Shown: one piece after another, positions 465-12,283 of the stretch
Position numbering within the stretch: the first letter of the stretch is position 1
Layout: each line of letters opens with the position of its first letter
Source of the DNA: a virus
Length of the DNA: 21,940 nt
Strand: one strand, 5' to 3'
IMG/VR virus record: IMGVR_UViG_3300034683_000343
Coordinates: 1-21,940 of that record
Made by a program: the position numbers and the translations under genes
The notes under the pieces: model-generated
Told to the model about the DNA's origin: nothing
Seen by the model: only the letters and a program-made list of their open reading frames with translations
Databases searched by the model: none

Positions 465-1439
465 ATGGCACGACGGCGGTACATATCTACGGAAATATCG
501 ACGGATCCTCTGGTGGCGAAGCTGGGAAGGGAGCATGGGTATTTCGCGGTCCTTTTGTACACCTGGCTGATTCCTCATGCGGAAGATGACGGGACGGCCC
601 CGCGGGATCCCGAGGAGATTCTGCTGAAGGTCCTTCCCGGGTTCCGGGATCTTACGATCGAAGACGTCGAATCCGCCCTGAAGGCCATGGACGAGTTGGG
701 GCTGGTAAAGCTCAACGGCGAACGGGTCTATTTTCCGGCGAAAAGCTTTTACAAATATCAGACCTATGTGGGGGAGTCTAAACGGCGACAGGAAGGGGAC
801 CCGGCGCCGGTAGCGGCGGAAAAGAGCGGCGAACAGCGCAAAACGCCGGAAAACGCCGACGAACAGCGCAAAACGCCGGAAAAGGCCGCTTCACCTTCAC
901 CTTCTCCTTCTCCTTCTCCTTCTCCTTCTCCTTCCCCTTCACCTACACCTACAAAAACCAAAAACAAAAAAGACTTGTCCGGCGAAAGTGCCGCCGGACT
1001 TTCCGCCGAGTTTGACGAGTGGTGGGAAGGGTACCCCAGGAAGGACGCGAAAAAAGAGGCGCTGGCCAAGTACAAGGCCACCCGTCGCAAGGGCGTGGCC
1101 CGAGAGGACCTCTTTCGTGCCCGTGACGTCTATGCCAGGTACGTCAGGTCCCAGGCGACGGAGAAGCAGTTCATGCTGCTGGCAAAGACCTTTCTCGGCC
1201 CGAACGAGCGATGGCGGGACTGGCTTAAGGGGCCCCCGGTGACGGGACGGTCGGCGGAACCGGCGTCGGCTTCGGATTTTGCGGACGAACGCAGGGAGAT
1301 CGACGAACTTTTCGGGGGTGATCAGCGTGCCTGGTGGCAATGGCGAAAGGCGGGAAAGCCTGAAATCGGCGAATGGCATCGTGGCAGAGGTAATGGGTCG
1401 GCTGGAAACGGTGCAGGAGACCGCGAAAAGCCTGGCTGA
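465..1439 (+). CDS. Phage replication initiator / replisome organiser-like protein
   Basis: A 324-aa protein with three parts. Residues 1 to about 105 are a winged-helix-like N-terminal domain (YISTEISTDPLVAKL, FAVLLYTWLIPHAEDDG) of the kind found in phage replisome organisers and DnaD-like initiators. Residues about 106-175 are a low-complexity linker with a duplicated 10-residue unit (EQRKTPE...) and nine Ser-Pro dipeptides. Residues about 180-255 resemble the C-terminal domain shared by phage replication proteins (FDEWWEGYPRKDAKKEAL ... KTFLGPNERWRDWL). Its expected role is origin binding and recruitment of the helicase loader encoded next. Its 3' end overlaps that gene by about 113 bases in another frame. 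Family placement is by motif memory; the origin itself was not located. Confidence 0.8.
   Translation: MARRRYISTEISTDPLVAKLGREHGYFAVLLYTWLIPHAEDDGTAPRDPEEILLKVLPGFRDLTIEDVESALKAMDELGLVKLNGERVYFPAKSFYKYQTYVGESKRRQEGDPAPVAAEKSGEQRKTPENADEQRKTPEKAASPSPSPSPSPSPSPSPSPTPTKTKNKKDLSGESAAGLSAEFDEWWEGYPRKDAKKEALAKYKATRRKGVAREDLFRARDVYARYVRSQATEKQFMLLAKTFLGPNERWRDWLKGPPVTGRSAEPASASDFADERREIDELFGGDQRAWWQWRKAGKPEIGEWHRGRGNGSAGNGAGDREKPG
831..890 (+). repeat. Tandem 30-bp duplication in the initiator linker
   Basis: Two 30-bp units, 831-860 and 861-890, match at 28 of 30 positions. Each encodes EQRKTPE plus three residues, so the duplication keeps the frame and lengthens the linker. Confidence 0.85.
891..944 (+). 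repeat. Hexanucleotide (TCT CCT) repeat encoding Ser-Pro dipeptides
   Basis: Nine consecutive 6-bp units of TCN CCT form encode (Ser-Pro)9 at residues 143-160, followed by Thr-Pro. Five central units are identical TCTCCT. Slippage would change linker length in steps of two residues without a frameshift, so this is a length-variable hinge rather than an on/off switch. Confidence 0.9.
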
Positions 1440-2127
1440 CTGTCCGGGTACGTGCCGGAACGGGAAGCTGGAGCTCTCGTGTGAGGGAAAGCCCTTCTGG
1501 TGGCCGTGCCCGTTGATGACCAAAGACTGCGAGTACGGAGCGAAGCTGTACCGGCAGTTCGTGGAGCAGATCCGGCTGGCGATCGTGGGGCTGGACATCC
1601 CGAGGGTGCATGTCGGGAATTTTGCCGACCCGAGGCCGACGACGGCCCTGAAGGCGGCGCGGGAGTGGAGCGGCGCCGGGTTTTTGGTCCTGATCGGGCC
1701 GACGGATACGGGAAAGTCTTACGCGGCTGCCTGGGCGGTGAAGCGTTTCGCCGAGCGGTGCGTGGACCGCCAGGCATGGCGCCGGCCGGACAAATGGCAT
1801 GAGAGCGTGGCGAAGATCCAGGGCGCGGTCCGGTGGCTACATATCCAGGAGCTCATCGAGGCTCGGGAAGACAGGGAGCGGATCCTCAAGGCCCGGTTTC
1901 TCGTGATCGATGACCTTGCGAGCGAGGACGCGACGCCGAGAACGAAATCGGTCATCAATTACGCGATTTCGACGAGGTACGACGACCGGCTTCCGACGGT
2001 GATCACGGCGAACCTGACGCGGCGGGAGATGGAGGATCGTTACGGCGGTCGCCTTATGGACAGGCTGTTTTGCGCTGGAACCATCGTCGATTGTGACGGG
2101 CCGGGGCTTAGGGCTGAAGTGGGGTGA
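1327..2127 (+). CDS. DnaC-like helicase loader ATPase
   Basis: A AAA+ ATPase of about 266 aa, expected to load the replicative helicase onto the phage origin. Walker A is GPTDTGKS (about residues 124-131), Walker B FLVIDD (about 191-196), sensor 1 VITANLT (about 225-231), and the arginine-finger region GGRLMDRL (about 240-247). The N-terminal part has five cysteines (39, 43, 52, 61, 68; CPGTC ... CPLMTKDC), suggesting a zinc-binding helicase-interaction domain as in DnaC-type loaders. I chose GTG 1327 because GGGGGTGA lies 5 bases upstream, close to the full anti-SD complement. ATG 1393 is the alternative and has a weaker site. Either start overlaps the initiator gene. SSB follows 5 bases after the stop. 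Confidence 0.85.
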   Translation: MPGGNGERRESLKSANGIVAEVMGRLETVQETAKSLADCPGTCRNGKLELSCEGKPFWWPCPLMTKDCEYGAKLYRQFVEQIRLAIVGLDIPRVHVGNFADPRPTTALKAAREWSGAGFLVLIGPTDTGKSYAAAWAVKRFAERCVDRQAWRRPDKWHESVAKIQGAVRWLHIQELIEAREDRERILKARFLVIDDLASEDATPRTKSVINYAISTRYDDRLPTVITANLTRREMEDRYGGRLMDRLFCAGTIVDCDGPGLRAEVG

Positions 2128-2132
2128 GTTGA

Positions 2133-2576
2133 ATGCCGAACAAGAACCTGCATGAAGTTTGCGGGCACATCGGAAGGCCTCCGGAAGTTCGCGCTACGGG
2201 AACGGGCAGGACCTATTGCCGGTTTTCCGTGGCAACGAACAACAATTACCAGAAAAACGGCAAGTGGGTCGAGGTTCCTCCGAGCTGGCACCAGGTCGTG
2301 ATCTGGGGAGATCTCGCAGATCTGGTCGCCGCAGAGTTCAAAAAAGGTGATGCGGTCATGGTGAGGGGTAAAAGCCATACGAGGAGCTTCACGAAAAACG
2401 GACAGACGGCCTGGCTGACGGAACTGACGGCCTTCGAGGTGTATCGGCCGATTTACGTTCGCAAGGCTGGGTCGGCGAATCTGCCGGATCCGGAAGATCC
2501 ATGGAATTACGAGGAAACAGACATGCATGACCAGGGCGATGATCCGGATTTCCCCTTCGGAGGCGGCAATGGGTAG
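2133..2576 (+). CDS. ssb: Single-stranded DNA-binding protein
   Basis: A 147-aa protein with the SSB OB fold over about residues 1-110. Landmarks are the N-terminal GHIGRPPEVR, the FSVATNNNY strand, WHQVVIWGDLAD, and VRGKSHTRSF. It coats single strands at the phage fork. The C-terminal tail is acidic and contains DDPDFPF, the usual partner-binding tip, but five residues (GGGNG) follow it. Those extra codons coincide with the GGAGGCGGCAATG that provides the ribosome binding site and start of the next gene, so the extension may be a by-product of that overlap. GGGTGAG lies just upstream of the ATG. Confidence 0.93.
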   Translation: MPNKNLHEVCGHIGRPPEVRATGTGRTYCRFSVATNNNYQKNGKWVEVPPSWHQVVIWGDLADLVAAEFKKGDAVMVRGKSHTRSFTKNGQTAWLTELTAFEVYRPIYVRKAGSANLPDPEDPWNYEETDMHDQGDDPDFPFGGGNG

Positions 2577-3102
2577 GGTCGCCGCCTTGCTCCCGCGCGA
2601 AAAAGAGGAAATATGCCGCCGGGCCCGATCCGGGGAGACGATTCGCGAAATAGCGGCAAGTTTTACTGTTTCGGAATCCACGATTTCCAAGTTTTTGCAT
2701 GAACGCGGGTTCGCACGACGGCACAGAACCGGACAGTCGCGTGCCAGACAATGGATGGGGAGCGACCAGCAGCGCCTCGAGGAGATGATGTCGCGCGGGA
2801 TGACATCGGAGGATATTGCCTTTGCGATGGATCGCCCGGTGGCAACGATACGACGAAAGATGCTTGAGACGCGAAAGCGCAGGGAAGGCGTTACGGATTT
2901 CGAGATCGGAAAGAAATACATGCTTCTGCAAAGGCAGCTGAGGAAGCTGGGAGTGGAAGACGAAATGCGGTGTCGGTATGAAGGTTCATGCCCTGGCTAT
3001 CGAGTGAAACACCATCTTTTCCGAAGCGTTTCTGGAGGATATCTGATCGCCATTTCCGATAGGCAGATGGATGACTATGAGATCAGGGAGGCGGGGAAAT
3101 GA
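2569..3102 (+). CDS. Helix-turn-helix DNA-binding protein
   Basis: A 177-aa protein (start MGRVAALLPREKEE). ATG 2569 is chosen because GGAGG sits 5 bases upstream and it overlaps the ssb stop, a typical coupled arrangement. A longer frame from 2527 lacks a good site. Residues about 22-48 form a clear helix-turn-helix (GETIREIAASFTVSESTISK), like those of resolvases and small terminases. A second helical repeat follows (about 68-93, MTSEDIAFAMDRPVATIRRK). The C-terminal part has two cysteines (CRYEGSC) and a HHLF motif. The specific role is unknown; an early regulator or replication accessory protein is likely from position. Confidence 0.75.
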   Translation: MGRVAALLPREKEEICRRARSGETIREIAASFTVSESTISKFLHERGFARRHRTGQSRARQWMGSDQQRLEEMMSRGMTSEDIAFAMDRPVATIRRKMLETRKRREGVTDFEIGKKYMLLQRQLRKLGVEDEMRCRYEGSCPGYRVKHHLFRSVSGGYLIAISDRQMDDYEIREAGK

Positions 3103-3296
3103 GCAGAAGAAGTGAAAGCATAAATGTATCTCAAACGCAGCGCCAGGCGGATCCGAAGATCGAATGGTTTCACAGGTACCACCAGGCCGTCAGATATCTT
3201 CTTGAGGTAGTCAAACCAGATACGGAACTTCCTTTCGCCGTTGGGGAAGCACTGTCCGACCTCAAAAGGATTCGCGACGAGGTGGAGGGGAATTAG
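3099..3296 (+). CDS. Small conserved-type phage protein whose 3' end is duplicated downstream
   Basis: A 65-aa protein overlapping the previous stop by ATGA. I recognise no domain. The C-terminal helix ends LKRIRDEVEGN. The DNA for the end of this helix (3257-3287) recurs exactly at 4951-4981, where the same reading would end in DEVES followed by a stop overlapping the next ATG. This points to an original gene order in which this gene directly preceded the MazZ-type gene at 4984. Confidence 0.65.
   Translation: MSRRSESINVSQTQRQADPKIEWFHRYHQAVRYLLEVVKPDTELPFAVGEALSDLKRIRDEVEGN
3257..3287 (+). repeat. 31-bp direct repeat, left copy
   Basis: A perfect 31-bp sequence beginning CGACCTCAAAAGG, identical to 4951-4981, with the copies 1694 bp apart. 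Bases immediately outside differ on both sides. It encodes DLKRIRDEVE at the end of the 65-aa protein and carries the GGTGGAG that serves as ribosome binding site for the gene at 3299. Confidence 0.95.
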
Positions 3297-3298
3297 CT

Positions 3299-3778
3299 AT
3301 GTGTGATCGGCTCTGGATCCCTTATTCAGGGTTTCAATATGACCTTTTTTCTCAGAAACCCGGGGAAGGTGGACAGAGGGATCTCGATCTCATAAAGAGC
3401 TGGGGGCTGGAATATCGGAAAACTCCAGAAGGCGAGCCGAACGTTGCAGATCTTTTGAACCTAGGAGATATCATATCCACGAACTACGGTCAGGCTCTGG
3501 AGCGCCGGTTCGGGCTGATTTTCGAGGTCCTGGAAACTCGTGGCCCATTTTACTTTAGTCCCATAGAACAGCCGGGTACGAAATATCCCAATTACAGCGC
3601 AATCTGTAGATCGACTGATGGATCTTATACCTGGAGTGAATTATGGTTCAACGAATTGGTTGCAGTCGGGAAAAGGATCTTGCATCTCTTCAAGAACAAT
3701 GATTCGGAGATTTTCGTGCTCGAAAAGCGAACGAGAGCATTTCAGAGGTCGTTATTCGGAACGGAGGTCCCAATATGA
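3299..3778 (+). CDS. Unknown 159-aa partner of the DruA-like protein
   Basis: This is the first gene in the repeat-flanked cassette. It is translated from the GGTGGAGGGG at the end of the left repeat and overlaps the next start by ATGA (3775-3778). The protein is soluble-looking with no signal peptide. It is Trp/Tyr/Phe-rich at the start (LWIPYSGFQYDLF) and has helical middle and C-terminal parts (FNELVAVGKRILHLF). I do not recognise a family. Strict coupling to the DUF4338 gene suggests the products act together. Confidence 0.7.
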   Translation: MCDRLWIPYSGFQYDLFSQKPGEGGQRDLDLIKSWGLEYRKTPEGEPNVADLLNLGDIISTNYGQALERRFGLIFEVLETRGPFYFSPIEQPGTKYPNYSAICRSTDGSYTWSELWFNELVAVGKRILHLFKNNDSEIFVLEKRTRAFQRSLFGTEVPI

Positions 3779-4950
3779 CTAACAATGTGCCATCGGCAGA
3801 GCACCTGAAGGTCGCTATTATCCGGTCTCTGCGCAAGCAGGGCTACAGGGTAGAGGACGGTATTATCCAAATGCCAGATAACCCTACGAAAGATGATTTT
3901 CGCGCTCTGAATGAACTTGCCCTGCAAAAGAAATTGGAAGTGTCCGGTCCGGGCGTCCGGCCTTATGAGGACAGGCTTATTCGATACATCGCCAATGGAA
4001 ACGAGGTGGTCCCCAGCGCGATACGCCCGAAGATCGTTGTCGTGAGGCAGGAATCCGAGCATGAGCTGCTTTTTCGTTACGCCTGTCTCCACTGGAGTAT
4101 CCCGGTTTCCGCAGGATATGGGAGAAGACTTCGGTTTCTCGTGTTCGATGAGAACAACGGTAAGCTGATTGGCTTATTCGGCTTAGGAGACCCAGTTTAC
4201 TCTATGCAAGCGCGAGACCGCTGGATTGGCTGGGACAAGGAAAACAAAGCACAGCGCCTGTATCACATAATGGATGCTTATGTACTTGGTGCTGTACCTC
4301 CATATTCATTCCTGCTGGGTGGAAAACTGATTGCAATGCTTGTATGCAGCAACGAGGTGCGACATGCATTCCGCAAAAAATACAACGGCAAAAAGTCTTT
4401 GATTAGACAGGAAACCCGGCCGCCTTACCTCGTACTGGTTACAACCACCTCCGCTCTTGGTCGCTCATCCATATACAACCGAATCCGCATTAATGGGCAC
4501 CAATATTGGACCAGTCTTGGATTCACACAAGGATCAGGTGAATTCCACTTTTCGAACGAAGTATATGGGGACATCAGGGCTTTCGTTGAAAAGAATTGTG
4601 AGCCTACGGCAAAACACGTCGCTTGGGGGACTGGTTTTCGAAACAAGCGCGAAGTGGTCCGCAAGTGTCTCTCGCATATTGGTCTCTCAGCCGATCTTAT
4701 TTACCATGGCATTCGCCGTGAGATATTTGCCGCACCCCTGGGGCGTGATGCAATACGGTTTTTGAAGGGAGAAGTTAAACGGCCGTGCTTCTATGACTGG
4801 CCGGCGTCGGATTTGTCGGAAGCCTTTAAGGAGAGATGGCTCATCGGTCGGTCGGAGAGAAAGCCCGAATATAGGGAATACACCCGTGAGGCGTATCGAC
4901 TTTGGCCATCCAAGACAAGAAATCAAAAGGAAGTTCCGTATCTGGTTTGA
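3775..4950 (+). CDS. druA: DUF4338 / Druantia DruA-like protein
   Basis: A 391-aa protein with the DUF4338 signature. GYGRRLRFLVFDENNGKLIG (about 115-134) is followed by the RDRWIGWD motif (148-155), then PPYSFLLGGKLIAMLV (175-190) and TTTSALGRSSIYNRIR (223-238). DruA is a component of type I Druantia anti-phage systems. Its biochemical activity is not established to my knowledge, and stand-alone relatives also occur. None of the other Druantia genes, in particular the large DruE helicase, is in this window. The gene ends immediately before the right repeat. A role in superinfection exclusion, or in mobilising the cassette itself, is inference. Family assignment is by motif recall and should be confirmed by profile search. 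Confidence 0.75.
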   Translation: MTNNVPSAEHLKVAIIRSLRKQGYRVEDGIIQMPDNPTKDDFRALNELALQKKLEVSGPGVRPYEDRLIRYIANGNEVVPSAIRPKIVVVRQESEHELLFRYACLHWSIPVSAGYGRRLRFLVFDENNGKLIGLFGLGDPVYSMQARDRWIGWDKENKAQRLYHIMDAYVLGAVPPYSFLLGGKLIAMLVCSNEVRHAFRKKYNGKKSLIRQETRPPYLVLVTTTSALGRSSIYNRIRINGHQYWTSLGFTQGSGEFHFSNEVYGDIRAFVEKNCEPTAKHVAWGTGFRNKREVVRKCLSHIGLSADLIYHGIRREIFAAPLGRDAIRFLKGEVKRPCFYDWPASDLSEAFKERWLIGRSERKPEYREYTREAYRLWPSKTRNQKEVPYLV

Positions 4951-4981
4951 CGACCTCAAAAGGATTCGCGACGAGGTGGAG
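4951..4981 (+). repeat. 31-bp direct repeat, right copy
   Basis: Identical to 3257-3287. It starts at the base after the DruA-like stop codon and supplies the AGGTGGAG ribosome binding site for ATG 4984. Read in the frame of the 65-aa gene it gives DLKRIRDEVE, then Ser and TGA (ATGA overlap with the next gene). Confidence 0.95.
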
Positions 4982-4983
4982 TC

Positions 4984-5421
4984 ATGAGTGAAAACAAAAC
5001 TGGGTCAACCACTCGGGAAATTATTCTTGAAGCGCTGGAAATGCGCCGAAACGCACACAAAAGCGGAGGTATGAATATGCTCGTCAACCAACAGAAAGAA
5101 GAGCCGGCGAATAATTTTGACGCCGGAAAACTCAGATACGACCTGATTCCGCCCGATGCTTTACGCGAACTCGCAAGAGTCTATACCGTAGGCGCTCAGA
5201 AATACGGGGATAGGAACTGGGAAAAAGGCATGAGCTGGGGAAGAGCTTTCGGAAGCCTCATGCGTCATTTGTGGGATTGGTTTTGGGGAGTTGAAGCCGA
5301 CGATGAAGACGGGTTACATCCTCTAGCTCACGGGGCCTTCAGAGTGTTCCAACTGCTTGCCTACTCGCTGCGGGGAATCGGGACCGACGACAGACCGAAA
5401 GGGGCTGGACCTGGTGAGTGA
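4984..5421 (+). CDS. dATP/dGTP diphosphohydrolase-like protein (MazZ / DUF5664 family)
   Basis: A 145-aa protein. The family core runs from about residue 45 to 130: KLRYDLIPPDALRELARVY, KYGDRNWEKGMSWG (73-86), RHLWDWFWG, and HPLAHGAFRVFQLLAY (112-127). The family belongs to the all-alpha NTP pyrophosphohydrolase (MazG/HisE-like) group. In cyanophage S-2L its member MazZ hydrolyses dGTP/dATP to feed 2-aminoadenine synthesis. Many phages carry it without the partner PurZ, and no PurZ is visible here, so nucleotide-pool control is the safer reading. The start at 4984 uses the repeat-borne binding site. An internal ATG at 5077 with GGAGG 7 bases upstream could give a shorter form that keeps the whole domain. 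Confidence 0.8.
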   Translation: MSENKTGSTTREIILEALEMRRNAHKSGGMNMLVNQQKEEPANNFDAGKLRYDLIPPDALRELARVYTVGAQKYGDRNWEKGMSWGRAFGSLMRHLWDWFWGVEADDEDGLHPLAHGAFRVFQLLAYSLRGIGTDDRPKGAGPGE

Positions 5422-5428
5422 GGAAAAG

Positions 5429-5638
5429 ATGAATGAGCATCCCGATCCCCAGAGACGCCGGTTCAGGTGCCGGCATTGGAGCATGGAGGAGGAAAGATGC
5501 CGCCTGCACATGCGGAGTTGTGAGATGTGTTTCATGTTCGATCGGATGAACGATTCGGAGTATAGAGCCCGAGCCAGGCGGTGGGGGCTGCAGGTACAGG
5601 AGCTGCTTTTCGAGGAGATGCAAAACAATGACTTGTGA
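5429..5638 (+). CDS. Small Cys/His-rich protein (probable zinc-binding)
   Basis: A 69-aa protein starting MNEHPDPQRRRF. GAGG lies 5 bases before ATG 5429; an in-frame GTG at 5414 is less likely. Residues about 12-37 contain CRHW, CRLH and CEMC, giving four Cys and two His that could bind a metal, followed by a helical tail (YRARARRWGLQVQELLFEE). The family is unknown. It lies in a run of short overlapping early genes. Confidence 0.65.
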   Translation: MNEHPDPQRRRFRCRHWSMEEERCRLHMRSCEMCFMFDRMNDSEYRARARRWGLQVQELLFEEMQNNDL

Positions 5639-5876
5639 GAAACACGAATACAGAGGATGGAATCTGGTTTTCGCCACGAACAGCAATATGTGGTTTACGG
5701 AGCTTGCTGGCGACACTGTCGTGCTTTATTTCGATCAACTACAGGTCAAGACCCTGGAAGATGCGAAAAAGAAAATAGACGAAATCGAAGACCGGCTCGA
5801 AAAAGAACATTTCGTTTCCAATCAGGAGTTGCGGGCGATAGGCAACATAGCTTTTCGGGATCAGCCCAGGCATTGA
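5628..5876 (+). CDS. Small hypothetical phage protein with predicted coiled segment
   Basis: An 82-aa protein whose ATG overlaps the preceding stop by 11 bases. The N-terminal part resembles a short beta-rich domain (YRGWNLVFATNSNMWF ... DTVVLYF). The remainder is a charged helix (LEDAKKKIDEIEDRLEKE). I do not recognise the family. No signal peptide or membrane segment is seen. Confidence 0.65.
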   Translation: MTCEKHEYRGWNLVFATNSNMWFTELAGDTVVLYFDQLQVKTLEDAKKKIDEIEDRLEKEHFVSNQELRAIGNIAFRDQPRH

Positions 5877-5884
5877 AGGGGGCG

Positions 5885-6124
5885 ATGGTTGTCATGAGCG
5901 AAACGGTTTTCGTGTTTTTCCTGGTCGCGTTGGGCTTCATGATCTTCGTCGTCGGGTTCCTTGTGGGGAATATCGCCGCAATGGATACCTCAAACATTCC
6001 TACGCCCAACTCGAGAGGCCACATTGAGCTCGCTGAAAAGCTCGAAATACCAATTCCGGAGCCGCCGAGGCCGCAAGTCAAGGGCGAGACAATTGAAGGA
6101 CCGATATCAGCTGATCCGCCTTAA
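5885..6124 (+). CDS. Small single-pass membrane protein
   Basis: A 79-aa protein from ATG 5885 (AAGGGGG just upstream). A longer open frame extends upstream but runs antiparallel in content to the previous gene and has no binding site. Residues about 8-29 (VFVFFLVALGFMIFVVGFLV) are one hydrophobic membrane segment, with a short N-terminus and a Pro/Glu-rich soluble tail (IPIPEPPRPQVKGE). Small one-pass proteins in early phage operons can be exclusion or accessory lysis proteins. Nothing here decides between these. Confidence 0.6.
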   Translation: MVVMSETVFVFFLVALGFMIFVVGFLVGNIAAMDTSNIPTPNSRGHIELAEKLEIPIPEPPRPQVKGETIEGPISADPP

Positions 6125-6148
6125 CCGGAACGGAAAGGGTGATCCTGA

Positions 6149-6859
6149 ATGTCTACTGCGTTCAAGGAAGCATGCGGGATAGCTGCGCGAGCCGAAAAAG
6201 CCGGCTGGTCGAACGCAGATCTTCAGCTTGCTGTGATGATGCAAGGCCGCGGTCAGAGTGTCAGGGAGATCTCTAAGGCCATCCGAAAGCCCGAGGAGCA
6301 GATCATGGAAGTGTTGGCCATCGCTACGAAGGAAGAAGATGCGAAACCGGAACCTGATGAACTGAAGTTGGACATAGGTGAAGGCAAAGCCAAACATGAC
6401 ATATCGGAAGTAGATGAATCATGGGTCATTGCCCGGATCGAGAACCTGAAAACTGAGGGGGCGACGTGGAAGGAGATCGCAAGGCATATCAATGACATGG
6501 GGATCACGACGGTGACGGGCAAACCATGGTCAAGTGCGAACCTTCTCCGATGGTACACCCAGCAGACGAGCACGGATCTAAAGCCTAAGCAGCGACCGAA
6601 AGATCCGCTGGGTGCCTACGAGGAGGTCCTCGAGGATGTCATGGAGATCTTGCAGGAAGAAGACGAGGAACAGGATTACGCCTTTTTGCGATCTGAATTC
6701 GGGTATGTATCCTTTTTGGTTCAGCTGACCCAGGAGGCCCGGAGGCTGAAGCGGCTTTCGCACAACGAGACCATAAAAACGGCCCTGTCCAGGATCACGG
6801 CGATGTGCCTCAAGGAATTGGCCCTGAGGTATGCCCAGGATATGGGCAGGGATCTGTGA
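6149..6859 (+). CDS. Helix-turn-helix protein of unknown role
   Basis: A 236-aa protein with AAGGGTGATC upstream, close to the full anti-SD complement. Two DNA-binding-like segments are visible. Residues about 22-57 (NADLQLAVMMQGRGQSVREI) precede an acidic linker. Residues about 93-132 (TEGATWKEIARHINDMGITT, then GKPWSSANLLRWY) resemble the helix-turn-helix found in recombinase domains of serine integrases. The C-terminal half is helical and acidic. No catalytic domain is attached, so it is more likely a regulator or replication accessory protein. Confidence 0.65.
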   Translation: MSTAFKEACGIAARAEKAGWSNADLQLAVMMQGRGQSVREISKAIRKPEEQIMEVLAIATKEEDAKPEPDELKLDIGEGKAKHDISEVDESWVIARIENLKTEGATWKEIARHINDMGITTVTGKPWSSANLLRWYTQQTSTDLKPKQRPKDPLGAYEEVLEDVMEILQEEDEEQDYAFLRSEFGYVSFLVQLTQEARRLKRLSHNETIKTALSRITAMCLKELALRYAQDMGRDL

Positions 6860-6873
6860 GAGGGGGAATCGGT

Positions 6874-7338
6874 ATGGGCTTGCCTGCCCACGTGAAACGT
6901 TTCGTTCTGTCTGAGGTCCGGTCATTGGAAGACTATCAGCGGGAAATAGAGTTCCGGAAGCGTCGTATCGACGAGCTCGAGCAGGAGAAAGACACCGTCA
7001 TTTTGCCTGATCGTCCCTTCGAGAGGGAACAAGTCCATGGCGGCAAGCCCGCCGATCCCGCCCAGCTGAAGGCGCTGTACCTGCAGGAGGAGATGGAGCA
7101 CCACCAGGAACGATATCGGATTCTGGCCAGAAAGGTGAAGATCCTGAACGAGGCGCTGGATATCCTGGACCCTGAACGACGCCATGTCCTGCTTTGGGCA
7201 TCCCAGCGAGAATCAGAACGCCCTACGGCAGAAATGTTTGCGCAGCGATTCTCTGTGTGCGAAAAGACCGTTTACAGGTGGCAGATCGACGCCGTGGAGC
7301 GGATTGCGCCGTTGTTATTGGGAGTTTTCGGGTTGTAG
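6874..7338 (+). CDS. ArpU/RinA-like late transcription regulator
   Basis: A 154-aa protein starting MGLPAHVKRFVLSEV. ATG 6874 is chosen because GAGGGGG lies upstream and the earlier frame runs inside the previous gene. Its size and order match the ArpU/RinA-type family: a long helical or coiled N-terminal part (EFRKRRIDELEQEKD ... LYLQEEMEHHQERYR), then a sigma70-region-4-like helix-turn-helix near the C-terminus (TAEMFAQRFSVCEKTVYRWQ). Members activate phage late genes. It is the last gene before a new promoter and is a reasonable candidate activator of the head operon. Assignment rests on architecture and position. Confidence 0.65.
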   Translation: MGLPAHVKRFVLSEVRSLEDYQREIEFRKRRIDELEQEKDTVILPDRPFEREQVHGGKPADPAQLKALYLQEEMEHHQERYRILARKVKILNEALDILDPERRHVLLWASQRESERPTAEMFAQRFSVCEKTVYRWQIDAVERIAPLLLGVFGL

Positions 7339-7351
7339 ATATTCACCCCCC

Positions 7352-7379
7352 TTGACATATATATATATTTCTATATACT
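7352..7379 (+). promoter_or_regulatory. Sigma70-type promoter of the accessory operon
   Basis: A perfect -35 TTGACA (7352-7357) and -10 TATACT (7374-7379) are separated by 16 bases of alternating TA sequence. The following gene starts at 7403 with GGGAGGTGG upstream. This is the best promoter match I found in the window and opens the AT-rich accessory block. Confidence 0.8.
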
Positions 7380-7402
7380 TATATGCAAGGGAGGTGGACA
7401 GA

Positions 7403-8572
7403 ATGGCATGGACGGAAGTTGAATGCAGGGAATGTGGAATGAAGTTTGAGGTCCAGATGTACGGACCTCACAAAGACAGAGAGTGGAGGGTTAAGAATCT
7501 CTATTGGCTTTGCGGTGAATGCAAGGCCAAAAAGCGAGAAGCAGAAGTAAAAGAAGCAGCCCAAAAAAGCCAGGAGATGGAATTGCCAGAATTACAGGGC
7601 AGCGAGAAACAGGTTCAGTGGGCGCTTAAAATCAGGTTACAAGCAATAAAGGAAATGGAGAAACAAATAGAACGTGATAAAAACATGGCCGATATTGATC
7701 TTGACGGAGATCCAGAAAAAGCAGAACGCTTGGTAAGACTCGGGATCCAAGAAGTACTTAAAGAGACACGAGCCTCCTGGTGGATAGATAGACGCGGTGA
7801 CGATTTTGGATTTATCGCTAGTAAAACGGGGAAAAAATTCCAGAATGCCCCCGAGATTACTGGAAAATATCTTGAAGCCGAGGCAGCAAAAGAAGCCAAG
7901 GCTGAAGCGACAGTAAGACCAACGGGAGCAGTAACAGATAACGTCGCCGAGATCGCATTTACAAATGACACAGTGACAATTTCCTTCCCGGAAAAAAGAG
8001 AGGATTTCAGGAAAACGGTGCGTGGTTTACGGTTTATATGGGATAGTGACAAGTTTCTGTGGAAGCGACGCATAAGCAACTTGAACGGCCCCGCCAAAGA
8101 TCGAATGGCCGAAGCCGGAAACAAAATCCTTTCAATTGGCGTCCCTGTCCGTATTTTCGACGAAGAAATTCGGAACGCCGCCATCAACGCTGAATTTCAA
8201 CACGAGCAGACCAGGTGGATCGTCGAGAATACAAATACTGGATGGTTCAGTATTGTTTGGTATCACAAAAATGAGGATTTTTACGAACAAGCCAGAAAGC
8301 TCCCTGGATCCAGATATGACAGAGATACCCGGAGCGTACTTGTACCACCGGAGAGTTTCCAAGAAGTTTTGGATTTTGCCGACATGTATAATTTCTGCTT
8401 GAGCGAAAAAGCTCAGGTAGTTGCGGATAAGGCAAGGGAAGATAAAGAGAAGAGCCTTATCGTGGATCCAGCGGAAGCGAAATCGATCAAAAACAAACCC
8501 AAATCGAAGCCGGAACCCCTCGAAATTCCGAAGGACGAAAATATAGATGAAGAGCTTCGAGACGACAACTGA
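7403..8572 (+). CDS. Zinc-ribbon protein with two HARP-like segments
   Basis: A 389-aa protein from ATG 7403 (GGGAGGTGG 5 to 9 bases upstream). Residues 8-40 hold a zinc ribbon (C8-x2-C11 and C37-x2-C40). A Lys/Glu-rich helical region follows. Residues about 190-250 (ISFPEKREDFRKTVRGL ... WDSDKFLWKRR) and about 281-336 (DFYEQARKLPGSRYDRDTRS) each look like a HARP-type unit, the small domain that accompanies SNF2 helicases such as SMARCAL1 and binds DNA. The tail is a basic/acidic linker. Its stop overlaps the start of the SNF2 helicase gene, so it is probably a separately encoded DNA-binding partner. HARP similarity is by pattern only. Confidence 0.65.
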   Translation: MAWTEVECRECGMKFEVQMYGPHKDREWRVKNLYWLCGECKAKKREAEVKEAAQKSQEMELPELQGSEKQVQWALKIRLQAIKEMEKQIERDKNMADIDLDGDPEKAERLVRLGIQEVLKETRASWWIDRRGDDFGFIASKTGKKFQNAPEITGKYLEAEAAKEAKAEATVRPTGAVTDNVAEIAFTNDTVTISFPEKREDFRKTVRGLRFIWDSDKFLWKRRISNLNGPAKDRMAEAGNKILSIGVPVRIFDEEIRNAAINAEFQHEQTRWIVENTNTGWFSIVWYHKNEDFYEQARKLPGSRYDRDTRSVLVPPESFQEVLDFADMYNFCLSEKAQVVADKAREDKEKSLIVDPAEAKSIKNKPKSKPEPLEIPKDENIDEELRDDN

Positions 8573-9962
8573 ATTGATGAGCCATCAGCGCGAGGCGGTT
8601 GCGAAGGTCCTCCCGTCTCGCGTTGGGGCCTTATTTATGGACATGGGGACCGGAAAGACGAGAACTGCGATAGAGCTGGTCAGGATTCGTAGTAAAAAGA
8701 TCAGTAAAGTCGTTTGGTTCTGTCCGGTCTCGCTCAAGGAAACAATCAGGTACGAAATACTGAAACATACTACCTGTACTGCGGAAGATATTTACGTGTT
8801 TAACAATAAGACTAAGAGTAACAGTATCCCAGACGCGCAATGGTATATCGTCGGCATCGAATCGATCAGCGCGAGCAACCGCGAAGCATGTGCTGCACAT
8901 AACCTGATAGATGGAAATTCCTTTGTGATTGTTGACGAGTCAAGCTATATAAAAGGACACAAGGCGAAACGTACCGAGAGGATCACTTTCTATGCTCGGA
9001 GTTGTCGATATAGACTCATTCTGACAGGTACGCCTATTTCGCAGGGGTACCAGGATCTTTTTGCGCAAATGAGGTTCCTGAGTCCAAAGATCCTTGGCTA
9101 CAATAGTTTCTATTCTTTTGCGGCCAATCACCTTGAGTATCACCCCAAATTTCATGGCATGATAGTCCGGGCACATAACACCGCGTACCTGGCAGCCAAA
9201 ATCAAGCCATACACGTACCAGGTTACAAAAAATGAATGTCTCGACCTCCCACCCAAGCTTTTTGACTCGCGGTATTTTTTCATGACCTCAGAACAGCGAA
9301 GAGCATATGAGCAGGCCAAGAACGAGATCTTGCTCGAATATGACCCGGATGATTGGAGCTCTATAGTGATATTCAGGCTCTTTTCCACGCTTCAGTCAAT
9401 CATTTGTGGCTTTTGGAATCGAGAGGGGAAACTGCTCACTTTTCCGCATAGGCGCATTGCAACGTGTATGGATGTGTTGCAGGCAATCCCCGACGGTGAA
9501 AAGGTAGTCATATGGATGAAATATAAAATGTCTGTGCAGGAAATCAAGGAGACGATACAGGGACTTTATGGGAGTCGTTCCGTAGCCGAGTTCCACGGAG
9601 GTAACCTGAAGGATAGAGACAAAGAGCTTGACAGGTTCCGGAACGACAAGCGAACTCGTTTTATGCTGGCGAACCAAAGTTGCGGTGGGCATGGGTTGAC
9701 CATCACGGAAGCTAGATATGCAATATTCTATGCAGATAGCTTCAAATACTCAGAACGCCTCCAGGCTGAGGATAGATGTCATAGGATAGGTCAGCAAGGG
9801 CCAGTGACATATATCTCGATACGGTGTCTGGACAGTATTGACGAGCGGATAGAAAGTGCCCTGATGAAAAAAGGAGATACTTTATCCATGTTCCGCAAGG
9901 AGGTCGATAAGGTGAAAAAGACTAATAAAGAAAAACTCCGAGAGTTGGTGAAATCGTTGTGA
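8547..9962 (+). CDS. SNF2-family DEAD-like helicase / DNA translocase
   Basis: A 471-aa two-lobed SF2 ATPase. Visible motifs are SHQREAVAKVL (Q-like), MGTGKT Walker A (33-38), VIVDESS motif II (127-133), LTGTP motif III (159-163), a second lobe with VVIWMKYK, HGGNLKDRDKELDRF and QSCGGHGLTIT, and motif VI AEDRCHRIGQQ (407-417) typical of SNF2 proteins. It is compact, without the large insertions or accessory domains of chromosomal remodellers, and its likely DNA-binding domains are on the preceding gene. The start overlaps that gene by 26 bases, with AAGGA 11 bases upstream. Related compact SNF2 helicases occur in phage replication regions. Here it is coupled to ibrA by GTGA overlap. Confidence 0.88.
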   Translation: MKSFETTTELMSHQREAVAKVLPSRVGALFMDMGTGKTRTAIELVRIRSKKISKVVWFCPVSLKETIRYEILKHTTCTAEDIYVFNNKTKSNSIPDAQWYIVGIESISASNREACAAHNLIDGNSFVIVDESSYIKGHKAKRTERITFYARSCRYRLILTGTPISQGYQDLFAQMRFLSPKILGYNSFYSFAANHLEYHPKFHGMIVRAHNTAYLAAKIKPYTYQVTKNECLDLPPKLFDSRYFFMTSEQRRAYEQAKNEILLEYDPDDWSSIVIFRLFSTLQSIICGFWNREGKLLTFPHRRIATCMDVLQAIPDGEKVVIWMKYKMSVQEIKETIQGLYGSRSVAEFHGGNLKDRDKELDRFRNDKRTRFMLANQSCGGHGLTITEARYAIFYADSFKYSERLQAEDRCHRIGQQGPVTYISIRCLDSIDERIESALMKKGDTLSMFRKEVDKVKKTNKEKLRELVKSL

Positions 9963-11176
9963 GCAAAACGTATCTAACCGAAAATGTCCTGACAGCCGCA
10001 AAGCGCCGAATTTCTCAGATCTATGACGAATTTGATCGGGTACTTGTGTCGTTTTCCGGCGGCAAGGACTCCACGGTTATGCTCGATCTCGTGATTCGGG
10101 AGGCAGAAAGACGGAGGCGCCTGCCTGTAGATGTGTTGTTTATCGACTGGGAAGCGCAGTACAAGGTCACAATCGAGCACGTCGAGGAAATGCTTGCAGA
10201 TTCAGTAAAAACGCGGGCCTGGTGGATATGCCTCCCTCTCACGACGGACAACGGGAGTTCGATGCACGAGCCGCTCTGGACCTCGTGGGACCCGGAGAAA
10301 CGCGACTTATGGGTGCGGGAGATGCCGGACCGTTCGGACGTCATTAAGGATTATGACGCCCTTCCATTCTATCGTTTTGGTATGTTTTTTGAAGAGTTTG
10401 TGCCGGAGTTTCAGAATTGGTTCGCCGGTGAGGATAAGTTGGCGTGTTTTGTTGGCCTCCGCGCTGATGAGAGCTTGAACAGGTTTAGGGCGATCAAGAA
10501 GAAACGACCCACGAGATACAATGGCTGGAGCTGGACGAGAATCATGGGTAAAAACGGCAACTCCGTCGCCGTGTATCCAATCTATGACTGGAAGGTACAG
10601 GATATATGGGCGTACATCGGGAAAAATAATCTCCCGTATAACAAAATTTATGATCGAATGTACTGGCTCGGAATCTCCCTGCACGAAATGCGGATAAACG
10701 AGCCCTACGGACCGGAAGCCCGGCGGGGGCTAGATAAATACCACCCACTTGAGCCAGAGACATGGAGTAAGATGGTCGAGCGGGTCGGTGGGGTAAATTT
10801 CGGTAAATTGTCGGGGCTCACAAGGCTTTTCGCACGCGGTAACAAGATAATCAGGCCGAAAACATTCAAAACTTGGAAAGACTATGCCATATTCCTGCTT
10901 GAGACATACCCACCAGAGGCGCGGGCGCATTATCTGCGCCGGATAAACGTGCTAATTAAATGGTGGCAGGACAACAGGCGAGAGGAATTGGATGCCGCCG
11001 GAGTGCCTGAAGGTGATATTTACGATGATCACGACAACCCTAAAAAGGAGTCCTGGCGGACGGTTTGCAGAGTCCTTCTTGAAAACGACTTCTTCTGCAC
11101 GAAACTATGTTTCGGGGTAAATAAGCGTGAGAAGGAGAAATTCGAGGCGCTGAAGGAAAAGTACAGGGATTTATAG
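9959..11176 (+). CDS. ibrA: IbrA-like PAPS-reductase-family protein (DUF3440)
   Basis: A 405-aa protein starting at GTG 9959, which overlaps the helicase stop (GTGA). The PP-loop SGGKDS (33-38) in VLVSFSGGKDSTVMLDL marks the ATP pyrophosphatase/PAPS reductase fold. This is followed by FIDWEAQ, GLRADESLNRFRAI and VYPIYDWKVQDIWAYI, typical of this superfamily. The C-terminal half (from about residue 250) matches the IbrA/DUF3440 layout. IbrA with IbrB was described as activating eib genes in E. coli strain ECOR-9 prophages; the chemical reaction is not established to my knowledge. It pairs with ibrB two genes downstream. Confidence 0.85.
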   Translation: MSKTYLTENVLTAAKRRISQIYDEFDRVLVSFSGGKDSTVMLDLVIREAERRRRLPVDVLFIDWEAQYKVTIEHVEEMLADSVKTRAWWICLPLTTDNGSSMHEPLWTSWDPEKRDLWVREMPDRSDVIKDYDALPFYRFGMFFEEFVPEFQNWFAGEDKLACFVGLRADESLNRFRAIKKKRPTRYNGWSWTRIMGKNGNSVAVYPIYDWKVQDIWAYIGKNNLPYNKIYDRMYWLGISLHEMRINEPYGPEARRGLDKYHPLEPETWSKMVERVGGVNFGKLSGLTRLFARGNKIIRPKTFKTWKDYAIFLLETYPPEARAHYLRRINVLIKWWQDNRREELDAAGVPEGDIYDDHDNPKKESWRTVCRVLLENDFFCTKLCFGVNKREKEKFEALKEKYRDL

Positions 11177-11189
11177 GGGGGCGTGATTG

Positions 11190-11636
11190 ATGAAAATGAT
11201 AGCCGAATATAAGGGGTACAAGATATTCCACATGACAGCCGAGCACGACCCGAAAGCGTTTTACGCCGAGATGGGGCATATCTTCGCGAGCCGGGAAATC
11301 CGTAAGGAACTCGATGGTTACCCGGTTGAAAACGAGCCTGGTAGGAAATGGGTAGTAGTCTATTATGGTGATGAGGTAGTAGGGTTTCGGAGTTATGACG
11401 TTAATGAAAAGGGTGAGGGGGTCTATTACGACGCATGGGTTCGGGAAGATTGCCGGAAGAATGGTCTTTACAGGCAGATGCTTGATCTCGCGGAAAGCGA
11501 GCTTAAGAAATCTTTCGGAGTATCAGTCATCAAGGCAATCGGAAACTCAACCTCGGCCCCGATTTTGAAGAAAAAAGGCTTCCACACTGTTAAGATGCGC
11601 GGGAAATTCCACGTAATGGAGAAGGTGTTGAAATGA
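11190..11636 (+). CDS. GNAT-family acetyltransferase
   Basis: A 148-aa protein from ATG 11190, with GGGGGG 8 bases upstream. An in-frame TTG at 11187 is not preferred. The GNAT fold is suggested by strand pairs WVVVYYGDEVVGFRSYD, the acetyl-CoA loop region VREDCRKNGLYRQMLDLAES (motif A R-x2-G-x form, about 86-105), and a C-terminal NSTSAPILKKKGF typical of motif B. It sits between ibrA and ibrB and overlaps ibrB by ATGA, so it belongs to the same system. The substrate is unknown; a protein, a small molecule or a modified nucleobase are all possible. Confidence 0.78.
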   Translation: MKMIAEYKGYKIFHMTAEHDPKAFYAEMGHIFASREIRKELDGYPVENEPGRKWVVVYYGDEVVGFRSYDVNEKGEGVYYDAWVREDCRKNGLYRQMLDLAESELKKSFGVSVIKAIGNSTSAPILKKKGFHTVKMRGKFHVMEKVLK

Positions 11637-12283
11637 CTGAATCGTTATTCTCGGCATTAGTAGACCTGATCGTATCGAAAGCGGAGGAGGTTTTTAAACA
11701 GCTCGACGATCTTGATCAAGAGAGCAAGATCGAGGCTGTCAACAGGATACGGCAATCACTCCACGAGTATAGCCCCTTCCAGGAGGATCCAGTGGATTGT
11801 GTGATATGGGTTCCTGCCGATAAAGTACAGGGGAATGACTATAACCCTAACGCCGTGGCGCCGCCGGAGATGCGGCTTCTGGAGCACAGTATAAAAATAG
11901 ATGGGTTCACGCAGCCCATTGTGGCATACCCGGAGAATGAGCACTATACCGTTGTTGATGGGTTCCATCGCACCAGGGTAGCAAAGGAATCCAGCGTGGT
12001 CAAAAAGCATCTTAAAGGCCATGTCCCCGTTGTAATAGTCAGGGGCGCACAGGCTGACCGCAAGAACCGGATGGCGGCAACAATCCGGCATAACAGGGCG
12101 CGTGGAGTGCATGGTGTAACGCCGATGATTGATCTGGTGGCATTATTGATACGAGACGGATGGAGCGACGAAGATGTAGCCAAAGAGCTTGGGATGGATG
12201 CCGACGAGGTGCTCCGTTTCAAACAGCATGCCGGACTGCCGGAGCTTTTTAAGAACCATCAATTTTCGCGGGCATGGGAGTGA
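11633..12283 (+). CDS. ibrB: IbrB-like ParB/Srx-fold protein
   Basis: A 216-aa protein. A helical N-terminal region (1-55) is followed by the ParB-like core: VPADKVQGNDYNPNAVAPPE (60-79), SIKIDGFTQPIVAY, and the VVDGFHR motif (107-113), where DGxHR is the signature also seen in ParB N-terminal and DNA phosphorothioation proteins. RHNRARGVHG (152-161) and a C-terminal helix-turn-helix (WSDEDVAKELGMDADEVLRF, 177-196) complete it. This order matches IbrB. The ParB/Srx fold can bind or hydrolyse nucleotides and can act on DNA. It overlaps the GNAT gene by 4 bases. Confidence 0.85.
   Translation: MTESLFSALVDLIVSKAEEVFKQLDDLDQESKIEAVNRIRQSLHEYSPFQEDPVDCVIWVPADKVQGNDYNPNAVAPPEMRLLEHSIKIDGFTQPIVAYPENEHYTVVDGFHRTRVAKESSVVKKHLKGHVPVVIVRGAQADRKNRMAATIRHNRARGVHGVTPMIDLVALLIRDGWSDEDVAKELGMDADEVLRFKQHAGLPELFKNHQFSRAWE

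What the first reader, a model, noticed from the sequence alone, without database searches (positions are those of the whole stretch)
3257..4981. 31-bp perfect direct repeats bracket a two-gene cassette and rebuild both neighbouring genes
The sequence at 3257-3287 recurs exactly at 4951-4981. The left copy is the end of the 65-aa gene plus the ribosome binding site for the first cassette gene. The right copy begins at the base after the last cassette stop and supplies the binding site for the MazZ-type gene. Read in the old frame, the right copy gives the same DEVE ending and a stop overlapping the next ATG, so the pre-insertion gene order can be reconstructed. This is a precise gain of two genes without damage, with a repeat too long for ordinary target duplication. 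It may be a modular insertion site in a phage replication region or the product of an unrecognised mobilisation mechanism.
Basis: partly seen in the sequence, partly recalled or inferred. Interest (0 to 1): 0.75.

Follow-up and report, generated by a model that had tools for sequence, protein, structure and literature searches.

The report
Phage-captured defence gene with fold-back scar
A phage took one gene from a bacterial defence-type gene cluster, and the join carries a short mirrored-and-repeated copy of the phage's own DNA, so the reported repeat is best read as the scar of a copying slip and not as the end of a mobile cassette.

Summary
The 31-bp exact repeat (3257-3287 / 4951-4981) is real, but it does not bracket a two-gene cassette. 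A sibling phage contig (L002; 96.8% identical over window 912-3785) has one repeat copy and already carries the first "cassette" gene, so that gene is resident. Only the second is foreign: a DruA/DUF4338 gene (PF14236, E 3.8e-138), 81-82% identical in DNA to genes in a Syntrophaceae MAG and another genome of its order, where it sits in a DUF499-DruA-NurA-HerA cluster. Host similarity begins where the phages diverge (about 3785), 498 nt past the left repeat, fused in frame to the resident start codon, and ends near 4926. There a 26-nt inverted copy of part of the 65-aa gene (3210-3235) begins and abuts the 31-nt direct copy. With the sibling's base at 3209, the two source pieces meet in a perfect 9-nt inverted repeat, a typical template-switch point. 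The 56-nt filler gives DruA its last residues and stop, and the next gene its ribosome-binding site. None of nine other DruA loci tested had flanking repeats above shuffle maxima. Best reading: capture of a host gene by microhomology-guided template switching. Mobilisation is not supported; an assembly artefact is unlikely but not excluded.

The parts
3099..3296 (+). Resident 65-aa gene, template for both copies at the right junction
   Evidence: 100% identical protein in L002; no family in Pfam, NCBIfam or PHROGs
3202..3210 (+). Left arm of the inverted repeat (TTGAGGTCG in L002; TTGAGGTAG in the window because 3209 differs)
3257..3265 (+). Right arm of the inverted repeat (CGACCTCAA), inferred switch point
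3210..3235 (+). Source of the inverted copy (26 nt exact; 34 nt, 3202-3235, with the L002 base at 3209)
3257..3287 (+). Left copy of the 31-nt repeat, read as the ancestral one; also the leader of the 159-aa ORF
   Evidence: single copy in L002 3698-3728
3299..3778 (+). 159-aa ORF of unknown family, a resident gene and not part of the insert
   Evidence: 98% identical in L002; no family match
3775..3785 (+). Resident start codon and first codons kept; left junction at about 3784-3786, in frame, with AA shared
   Evidence: L002 ATGACCAACAAGG, window ATGACTAACAATGTG, host G077 ATGAATGTACC
3786..4925 (+). Host-like body of DruA (DUF4338); whole ORF 3775-4950, 391 aa
   Evidence: PF14236 E 3.8e-138; PADLOC DruA1 E 6.3e-119; 87% aa to L055 and G077
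4926..4951 (-). Inverted copy of 3210-3235, encoding DruA's last residues and its stop (4948-4950)
   Evidence: not in the host DruA ends seen
4951..4981 (+). Right copy of the 31-nt repeat, read as the derived one, ending in GAGGTGGAG before ATG 4984
4982..5094 (+). Start of the MazZ-type gene with no DNA match in L002; origin unresolved, perhaps a diverged allele
   Evidence: blastn match to L002 resumes at 5095; residues 9-29 resemble the L002 gene start, 48% over 21 aa, E 0.099
4984..5421 (+). dATP/dGTP diphosphohydrolase N-terminal (MazZ-type) gene
   Evidence: PF18909 E 5.6e-29; 5095-5654 is 99.8% identical to L002

Best explanation
The phage captured the druA gene of a bacterial DUF499-DruA-NurA-HerA-type cluster, and the right-hand join was made by DNA polymerase switching templates. 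SHOWN: the druA body (about 3786-4925) is host-like and is absent at this place from the sibling phage; its 5' end is fused in frame to the first codons of a resident gene; its 3' end is followed by a 26-nt inverted copy and then a 31-nt direct copy of the phage's own 65-aa gene. INFERRED: the growing strand left the host druA end at an AAAGGA-like match, copied the opposite strand of the 65-aa gene from 3235 downward, switched back at the 9-nt inverted repeat TTGAGGTCG/CGACCTCAA, copied 3257-3287, and resumed on resident DNA next to the MazZ-type gene. The scar was kept because it supplies a stop codon for druA and a ribosome-binding site for the next gene. The repeats could still recombine and delete the 159-aa ORF plus druA, but they were not made by a mobile element.
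For: Sibling L002 has one repeat copy, the 159-aa ORF and no DruA match. DNA similarity starts at window 3784 in the three genomes with a druA match and ends at 4931-4933 in the two full-length ones. The inverted and direct copies abut. With the L002 base at 3209 the inverted copy extends to 34 of 34 nt and overlaps the direct copy by 9 nt; 0 of 20,000 random inverted-direct joins in the L002 65-aa/159-aa stretch shared 9 nt or more. At 3218 the inverted copy has the window's base and not L002's, as expected if it was copied from this lineage's own gene. A scan for adjacent inverted-plus-direct composites in 81 sequences (the window and 80 loci, many overlapping; 682,446 bases) found one, the window's own, and none in shuffled sequences. 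DruA stays under purifying selection: dN/dS 0.076 against L055; on the part covered by L056, window-side codon changes were 33 synonymous to 3 nonsynonymous.
Against: Only one close sibling is known, so it is not settled whether L002's 163-aa gene or another arrangement preceded druA, or even whether L002 lost druA. The actual donor was not found (dS 1.13 to L055), nor was the pre-event right flank (4982-5094). Two of the host relatives give shorter DNA matches that do not show the ends: L056 4054-4907 (its contig starts inside the gene) and L057 3985-4742. The order and number of switches are inferred from one product. The base at 4952 could come from the direct arm alone, so the 9-nt arm rests on the L002 base at 3209; with the present window base the perfect arm is 7 nt. 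The record is a single metagenomic contig.
Confidence: 0.8

Rival explanations
1. Mobile two-gene cassette or modular insertion site: the 31-nt repeats are ends or target duplications made by an unrecognised mobilisation mechanism.
For: Exact 31-nt repeats with two genes between them; the interval between the HTH gene and the RCRHWS gene differs among the three related phages seen (window, L002, L059).
Against: The 159-aa ORF is resident in L002 without a second repeat. The foreign DNA begins 498 nt past the left copy. 9 of 9 other DruA loci tested show no flanking direct or inverted repeat above the shuffle maximum. One full-length copy per genome in the 2 of 155 order genomes that have one. 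The adjoining inverted copy is unexplained.
Confidence: 0.04
2. Recombination with an unsampled phage that already carried druA together with this right flank, so the scar arose elsewhere and was imported.
For: The phages are mosaic: 5095-5654 is 99.8% identical to L002 while other matched blocks are 81-98.5%; 4982-5094 has no L002 DNA match.
Against: Both copies match this phage's own 65-aa gene, with this lineage's base at 3218. Near DruA genes were not found in IMG/VR (0 relatives with the window protein; 3 distant ones at 25-29% with the L055 protein; these scans reach close relatives only), and all 18 matching records among 50,697 phage records are under 60% identity.
Confidence: 0.1
3. 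Metagenome assembly chimera: a host druA read path was joined to the phage at a short repeat.
For: A repeat of 31 nt is near common assembly word sizes (recalled); single contig; no reads available here.
Against: The 5' fusion keeps the reading frame and the 3' join gives a stop and a ribosome-binding site. The scar is an inverted plus direct composite with microhomology. DruA is about 18-19% different in DNA from the full-length host copies found.
Confidence: 0.06

Closest known systems
Phage morons and mosaic joints made by illegitimate recombination (PMC3029335, passages read)
   Same: A gene present in one phage and absent at that place in its sibling; joints close to gene boundaries that keep genes functional
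   Different: No own promoter or terminator was looked for; start codon and downstream ribosome-binding site are borrowed from the phage; the right joint carries a templated filler copied from a neighbouring gene
Template switching between inverted-repeat arms, with spacer inversion (PMC8604942, abstract and outline read; PMC7202029 and PMC6357072, search listing only)
   Same: Short inverted-repeat arms, inverted spacer copy joined to direct sequence, changes to the encoded protein
   Different: Here the copy lies 1.7 kb from its source and seals the end of a captured foreign gene, instead of editing the repeat in place
DruA / DUF4338 (PF14236) of Druantia type systems
   Same: Full-length Pfam match and strong PADLOC DruA match
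   Different: Alone in the phage; the nearest host copies lie with NurA and HerA genes (and DUF499 where the upstream side is held), and no Druantia helicase is seen in the window

Membership tests
Phage moron (acquired extra gene) | Present in one phage, absent at that place in a close relative | tested here: met
   L002 has a different gene at that place; a search of its 41-kb record found no DruA (the tool warns that an empty answer alone proves little, but the same query matched the window's own record)
Phage moron (acquired extra gene) | Own promoter and terminator | not tested
   No promoter or terminator scan was run
Transposon or cassette with direct repeats at its ends | Repeats lie at both ends of the inserted DNA | tested here: not met
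   Left copy ends at 3287, insert starts about 3785
Transposon or cassette with direct repeats at its ends | Empty site with one copy and none of the cargo | tested here: not met
   L002 has one copy but still carries the 159-aa ORF
Transposon or cassette with direct repeats at its ends | Other copies of the cargo show the same ends | tested here: not met
   9 of 9 other DruA loci tested have no flanking repeat above the shuffle maximum (L055 and L074 are close relatives); L056, L060-L062 and the G148 and G122 matches were not tested
Inverted-repeat template-switch product | Adjacent inverted and direct copies of one nearby source | tested here: met
Inverted-repeat template-switch product | Switch point inside inverted-repeat arms | tested here: met
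   9-nt perfect arms with the L002 base at 3209, 7 nt with the window base
DruA (PF14236) | Full-length match above the curated cut-off | tested here: met
   460.1 bits against cut-off 27, profile 1-297 of 297
Druantia defence system | DruA accompanied by a large Druantia helicase (recalled) | tested here: not met
   No closed ORF in the window exceeds 658 aa (ORFs running off the ends not listed); the 159-aa ORF has no PADLOC match and the downstream gene is PF18909. The record is 21,940 bases and may be a fragment

The most novel reading that the evidence does not exclude
Replication template switching at short matches, some of them ribosome-binding-site-like, may be a general way in which tailed phages pick up host genes and at once write a new stop codon and a new ribosome-binding site. 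Here it lifted one component out of a host DUF499-DruA-NurA-HerA cluster, and the phage may use the lone DruA as a decoy or regulator against that host system, or against rival phages.
Probability: 0.15. Interest if true: 0.7.

Novelty: new variant of a known kind. Interest (0 to 1): 0.45.

Why it matters
How phages pick up single host genes without harming compact operons is usually unseen because the joints decay (general knowledge). Here the copies are still exact over 26 and 31 nt, a sibling without the gene is known, and relatives of the donor cluster are known. One event can therefore be read almost base by base, and the role of short inverted repeats and ribosome-binding-site-like matches in gene capture becomes testable. 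It also shows a phage carrying a lone component of a defence-type gene cluster. For the scan it is a warning that a long exact repeat around genes need not mean a mobile cassette.

Tried and rejected
Target-site duplication or mobile cassette: rejected on L002 and on the position of the left junction. DruA as a multi-copy element: 2 of 155 genomes of the order have a full-length copy, one each (4 of 155 match at all, one a broken fragment and one weak at 26% identity).

Searches for further relatives: the 65-aa gene, 159-aa ORF, SSB and the L002 163-aa gene each found only the L002 contig; the HTH gene also found L059. All 8 virus-collection scans went to protein queries, so the 31-mer itself was never scanned there. 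The DNA stretch 2133-6900 had one weak match (3% of the query) in 50,697 phage records; the 159-aa ORF none. The stretch 2133-5700 in 155 genomes of the order of G002 matched host druA in 3 genomes plus one 52-nt match, so no prophage was seen there.

Origin of window 4982-5094: the first 36 residues of the MazZ-type protein have no convincing match in the 51 MazZ loci; the best is L002's own gene start (48% over 21 aa, E 0.099), and whole-protein alignments that reach into this part in L004, L031, L040, L045 and L047 are weak there. It may be a diverged allele of the L002 start; not settled.

AlphaFold2 model of DruA from 4 sequences: mean pLDDT 41.6, unusable, no fold search made. Solved structures: two matches at E 0.8 and 0.9, taken as chance.

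Papers: DUF4338 occurs in 3 held papers (listing) and DruA with transposase in none. Druantia with phage-encoded: 18 papers, 15 listed; in PMC12458937 I read passages only and found no NurA, HerA or DUF499. Searches for template switching or templated insertion in phage gene capture listed no paper whose title or abstract start concerns this kind of event (8 of 8 listed, 12 of 248, 2 of 2); a search on morons and illegitimate recombination listed 10. A search for at least two of DruA, NurA and HerA listed 20 of 77 papers, none of the 20 holding DruA. Only open-licence papers are held, so absence there is weak.

Full report
Observation. The 31-nt repeat 3257-3287 / 4951-4981 is exact, with a chance expectation near 5e-11 under a uniform-base estimate. 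What was missed is a second exact match: 4926-4951 is the reverse complement of 3210-3235 (26 nt) and shares one base with the right direct copy. No other inverted match of 15 nt or more exists in the window.

What is between the repeats. The first ORF (3299-3778, 159 aa) matches no family in Pfam, NCBIfam, PADLOC or PHROGs. The second (3775-4950, 391 aa) is DruA/DUF4338 (PF14236, E 3.8e-138; PADLOC DruA1). The downstream gene is a dATP/dGTP diphosphohydrolase N-terminal protein (PF18909).

The sibling phage. IMG/VR contig IMGVR_UViG_3300005067_000090 (L002 and overlapping loci; record of 41,022 bases) is 96.8% identical over window 912-3785 and 99.8% over 5095-5654; other matched blocks are 81%, 90% and 98.5%. 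It has one copy of the 31-mer, the 65-aa gene (100% identical protein) and the 159-aa ORF (98%), and no DruA match. After the 159-aa ORF it has a 163-aa gene that begins ATGACCAACAA, then a 210-aa MazZ-type gene with a different N-terminus. A more distant relative (L059, 87% DNA identity over window 899-2128) has none of these in the 12.5 kb held: a DUF1599 gene follows the HTH gene. So this is a variable slot, and the 159-aa ORF is resident. With the window, only three related phages were found, so the ancestral order is not fixed, and a loss of druA in L002 is not excluded.

The donor. DruA relatives at 87%, 82% and 63% protein identity were found in three genome contigs (L055 Syntrophaceae MAG, L056 Deltaproteobacteria MAG, L057 Armatimonadetes MAG). 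In all three a NurA-domain gene follows (Pfam), then a HerA-like gene: DUF87 by Pfam in L055 and L056, a truncated frame resembling L055's by eye in L057. Of 155 genomes of the order of L055's genome, 4 match: two full-length at 87%, one broken fragment, one weak. DNA similarity to the window starts at 3784 in the three genomes with a druA DNA match and ends at 4931-4933 in the two full-length ones. The left limit is where the window leaves L002 (3785). L056 and L057 give shorter DNA matches that do not show the ends. The donor itself was not found: dS to L055 is 1.13.

The joints. Left: resident ATGAC(C/T)AACAA is followed by host-like AATGTGCCATCGG, in frame. Host to phage: host AAAGGAGG in G077 (AAGGGAGG in L055) and phage AAAGGAAG share AAAGGA or less. 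Inverted to direct: L002 differs from the window at 3209 (C), 3218 (G) and 3239 (A). With C at 3209 the arms TTGAGGTCG (3202-3210) and CGACCTCAA (3257-3265) are perfect 9-nt inverted repeats, and the inverted copy is 34 of 34 nt. None of 20,000 random inverted-direct joins in a 680-nt stretch of L002 shared 9 nt or more; 0.07% shared 7 or 8. At 3218 the inverted copy carries the window's base and not L002's, as expected if it was copied from this lineage's own gene. The right-hand joint (4981/4982) cannot be polarised because no relative with the 4982-5094 stretch was found; its protein start weakly resembles L002's.

Consequences. The filler supplies DruA's last five to seven residues and its TGA (4948-4950); the host proteins end differently, in KINKGGN, DGVRHDR and TLEEEGR. 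The filler also supplies GAGGTGGAG in front of ATG 4984. The gene evolves as a working gene: dN/dS 0.076 against L055, and, over the part covered by L056, 33 synonymous to 3 nonsynonymous codon changes on the window side where L055, G077 and L056 agree. Most of that branch may predate the capture, so this does not prove function in the phage.

Against a mobile element. In 9 other DruA loci (L055, L057, L074, L076-L081) the longest direct match between 1.5-kb flanks was 10-12 nt and the longest inverted 10-13 nt, never above the maximum of 30 shuffles (12-14); the window gave 31 and 26, with shuffle maxima of 15 and 12. L056, L060-L062 and the matches in G148 and G122 were not tested that way. 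A scan for adjacent inverted-plus-direct composites over 81 sequences (the window and 80 loci, several overlapping; 682,446 bases) found only the window's; shuffles gave none.

Mechanism. The order of copying is inferred: host druA end, opposite strand of the 65-aa gene, switch at the inverted repeat, 65-aa gene, resident DNA. Template switching between inverted-repeat arms with spacer inversion is described in yeast (PMC8604942, abstract and outline), and quasipalindrome template-switch mutations in E. coli (PMC7202029 and PMC6357072, search listing). Illegitimate recombination as a source of phage mosaicism is discussed in PMC3029335 (passages). My searches listed no paper on such a fold-back filler at a phage gene-gain joint; they saw open-licence papers only, and of some lists only the top.

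What DruA does here is unknown. The structure model was too poor to use (pLDDT 41.6) and no solved relative was found by sequence. A lone component of a host defence-type cluster in a phage could be a decoy, a regulator or a weapon against other phages; this is speculation.

Verdict. The repeat is real, and the reading as a two-gene mobile cassette is not supported. It is best explained as the scar of a capture of one host gene by template switching. The main remaining doubts are the single metagenomic contig and the single close sibling.

Noticed in passing
L055 49-7062; L074 (reverse complement) about 1140-8180; L056; L057: A host gene cluster DUF499 (HmaC-like)-DruA-NurA-HerA, with a methylase-like gene (by eye) upstream in G077. 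Of the 20 papers listed (of 77) for at least two of DruA, NurA and HerA, none holds DruA. Possibly an undescribed defence arrangement.
   Followed up: partly
window 5655-6747: About 1.09 kb, including a 236-aa ORF with a Recombinase domain (PF07508, E 1.6e-05), is absent at this place from L002, with a 2-nt overlap of the flanking matches.
   Followed up: no
window 9959-11176 and 11633-12283: PAPS reductase/DUF3440 gene and a ParB_N-domain gene (the latter just under the Pfam cut-off), resembling the IbrA/IbrB pair (pair name recalled; domains).
   Followed up: no
window 889-936: Tandem CTTCNC repeats encoding a Ser-Pro run in the 465-1439 ORF; L059 encodes a similar run.
   Followed up: no
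L076 2575-4270: In Pelagibacter phage Mosig a distant DUF4338 gene is directly followed by a MazG-domain gene, another DruA beside a nucleotide pyrophosphohydrolase-type gene.
   Followed up: no
L075 (G148), reverse complement 4427-4702: A DruA remnant cut after about 92 codons downstream of a DUF499-like frame.
   Followed up: no
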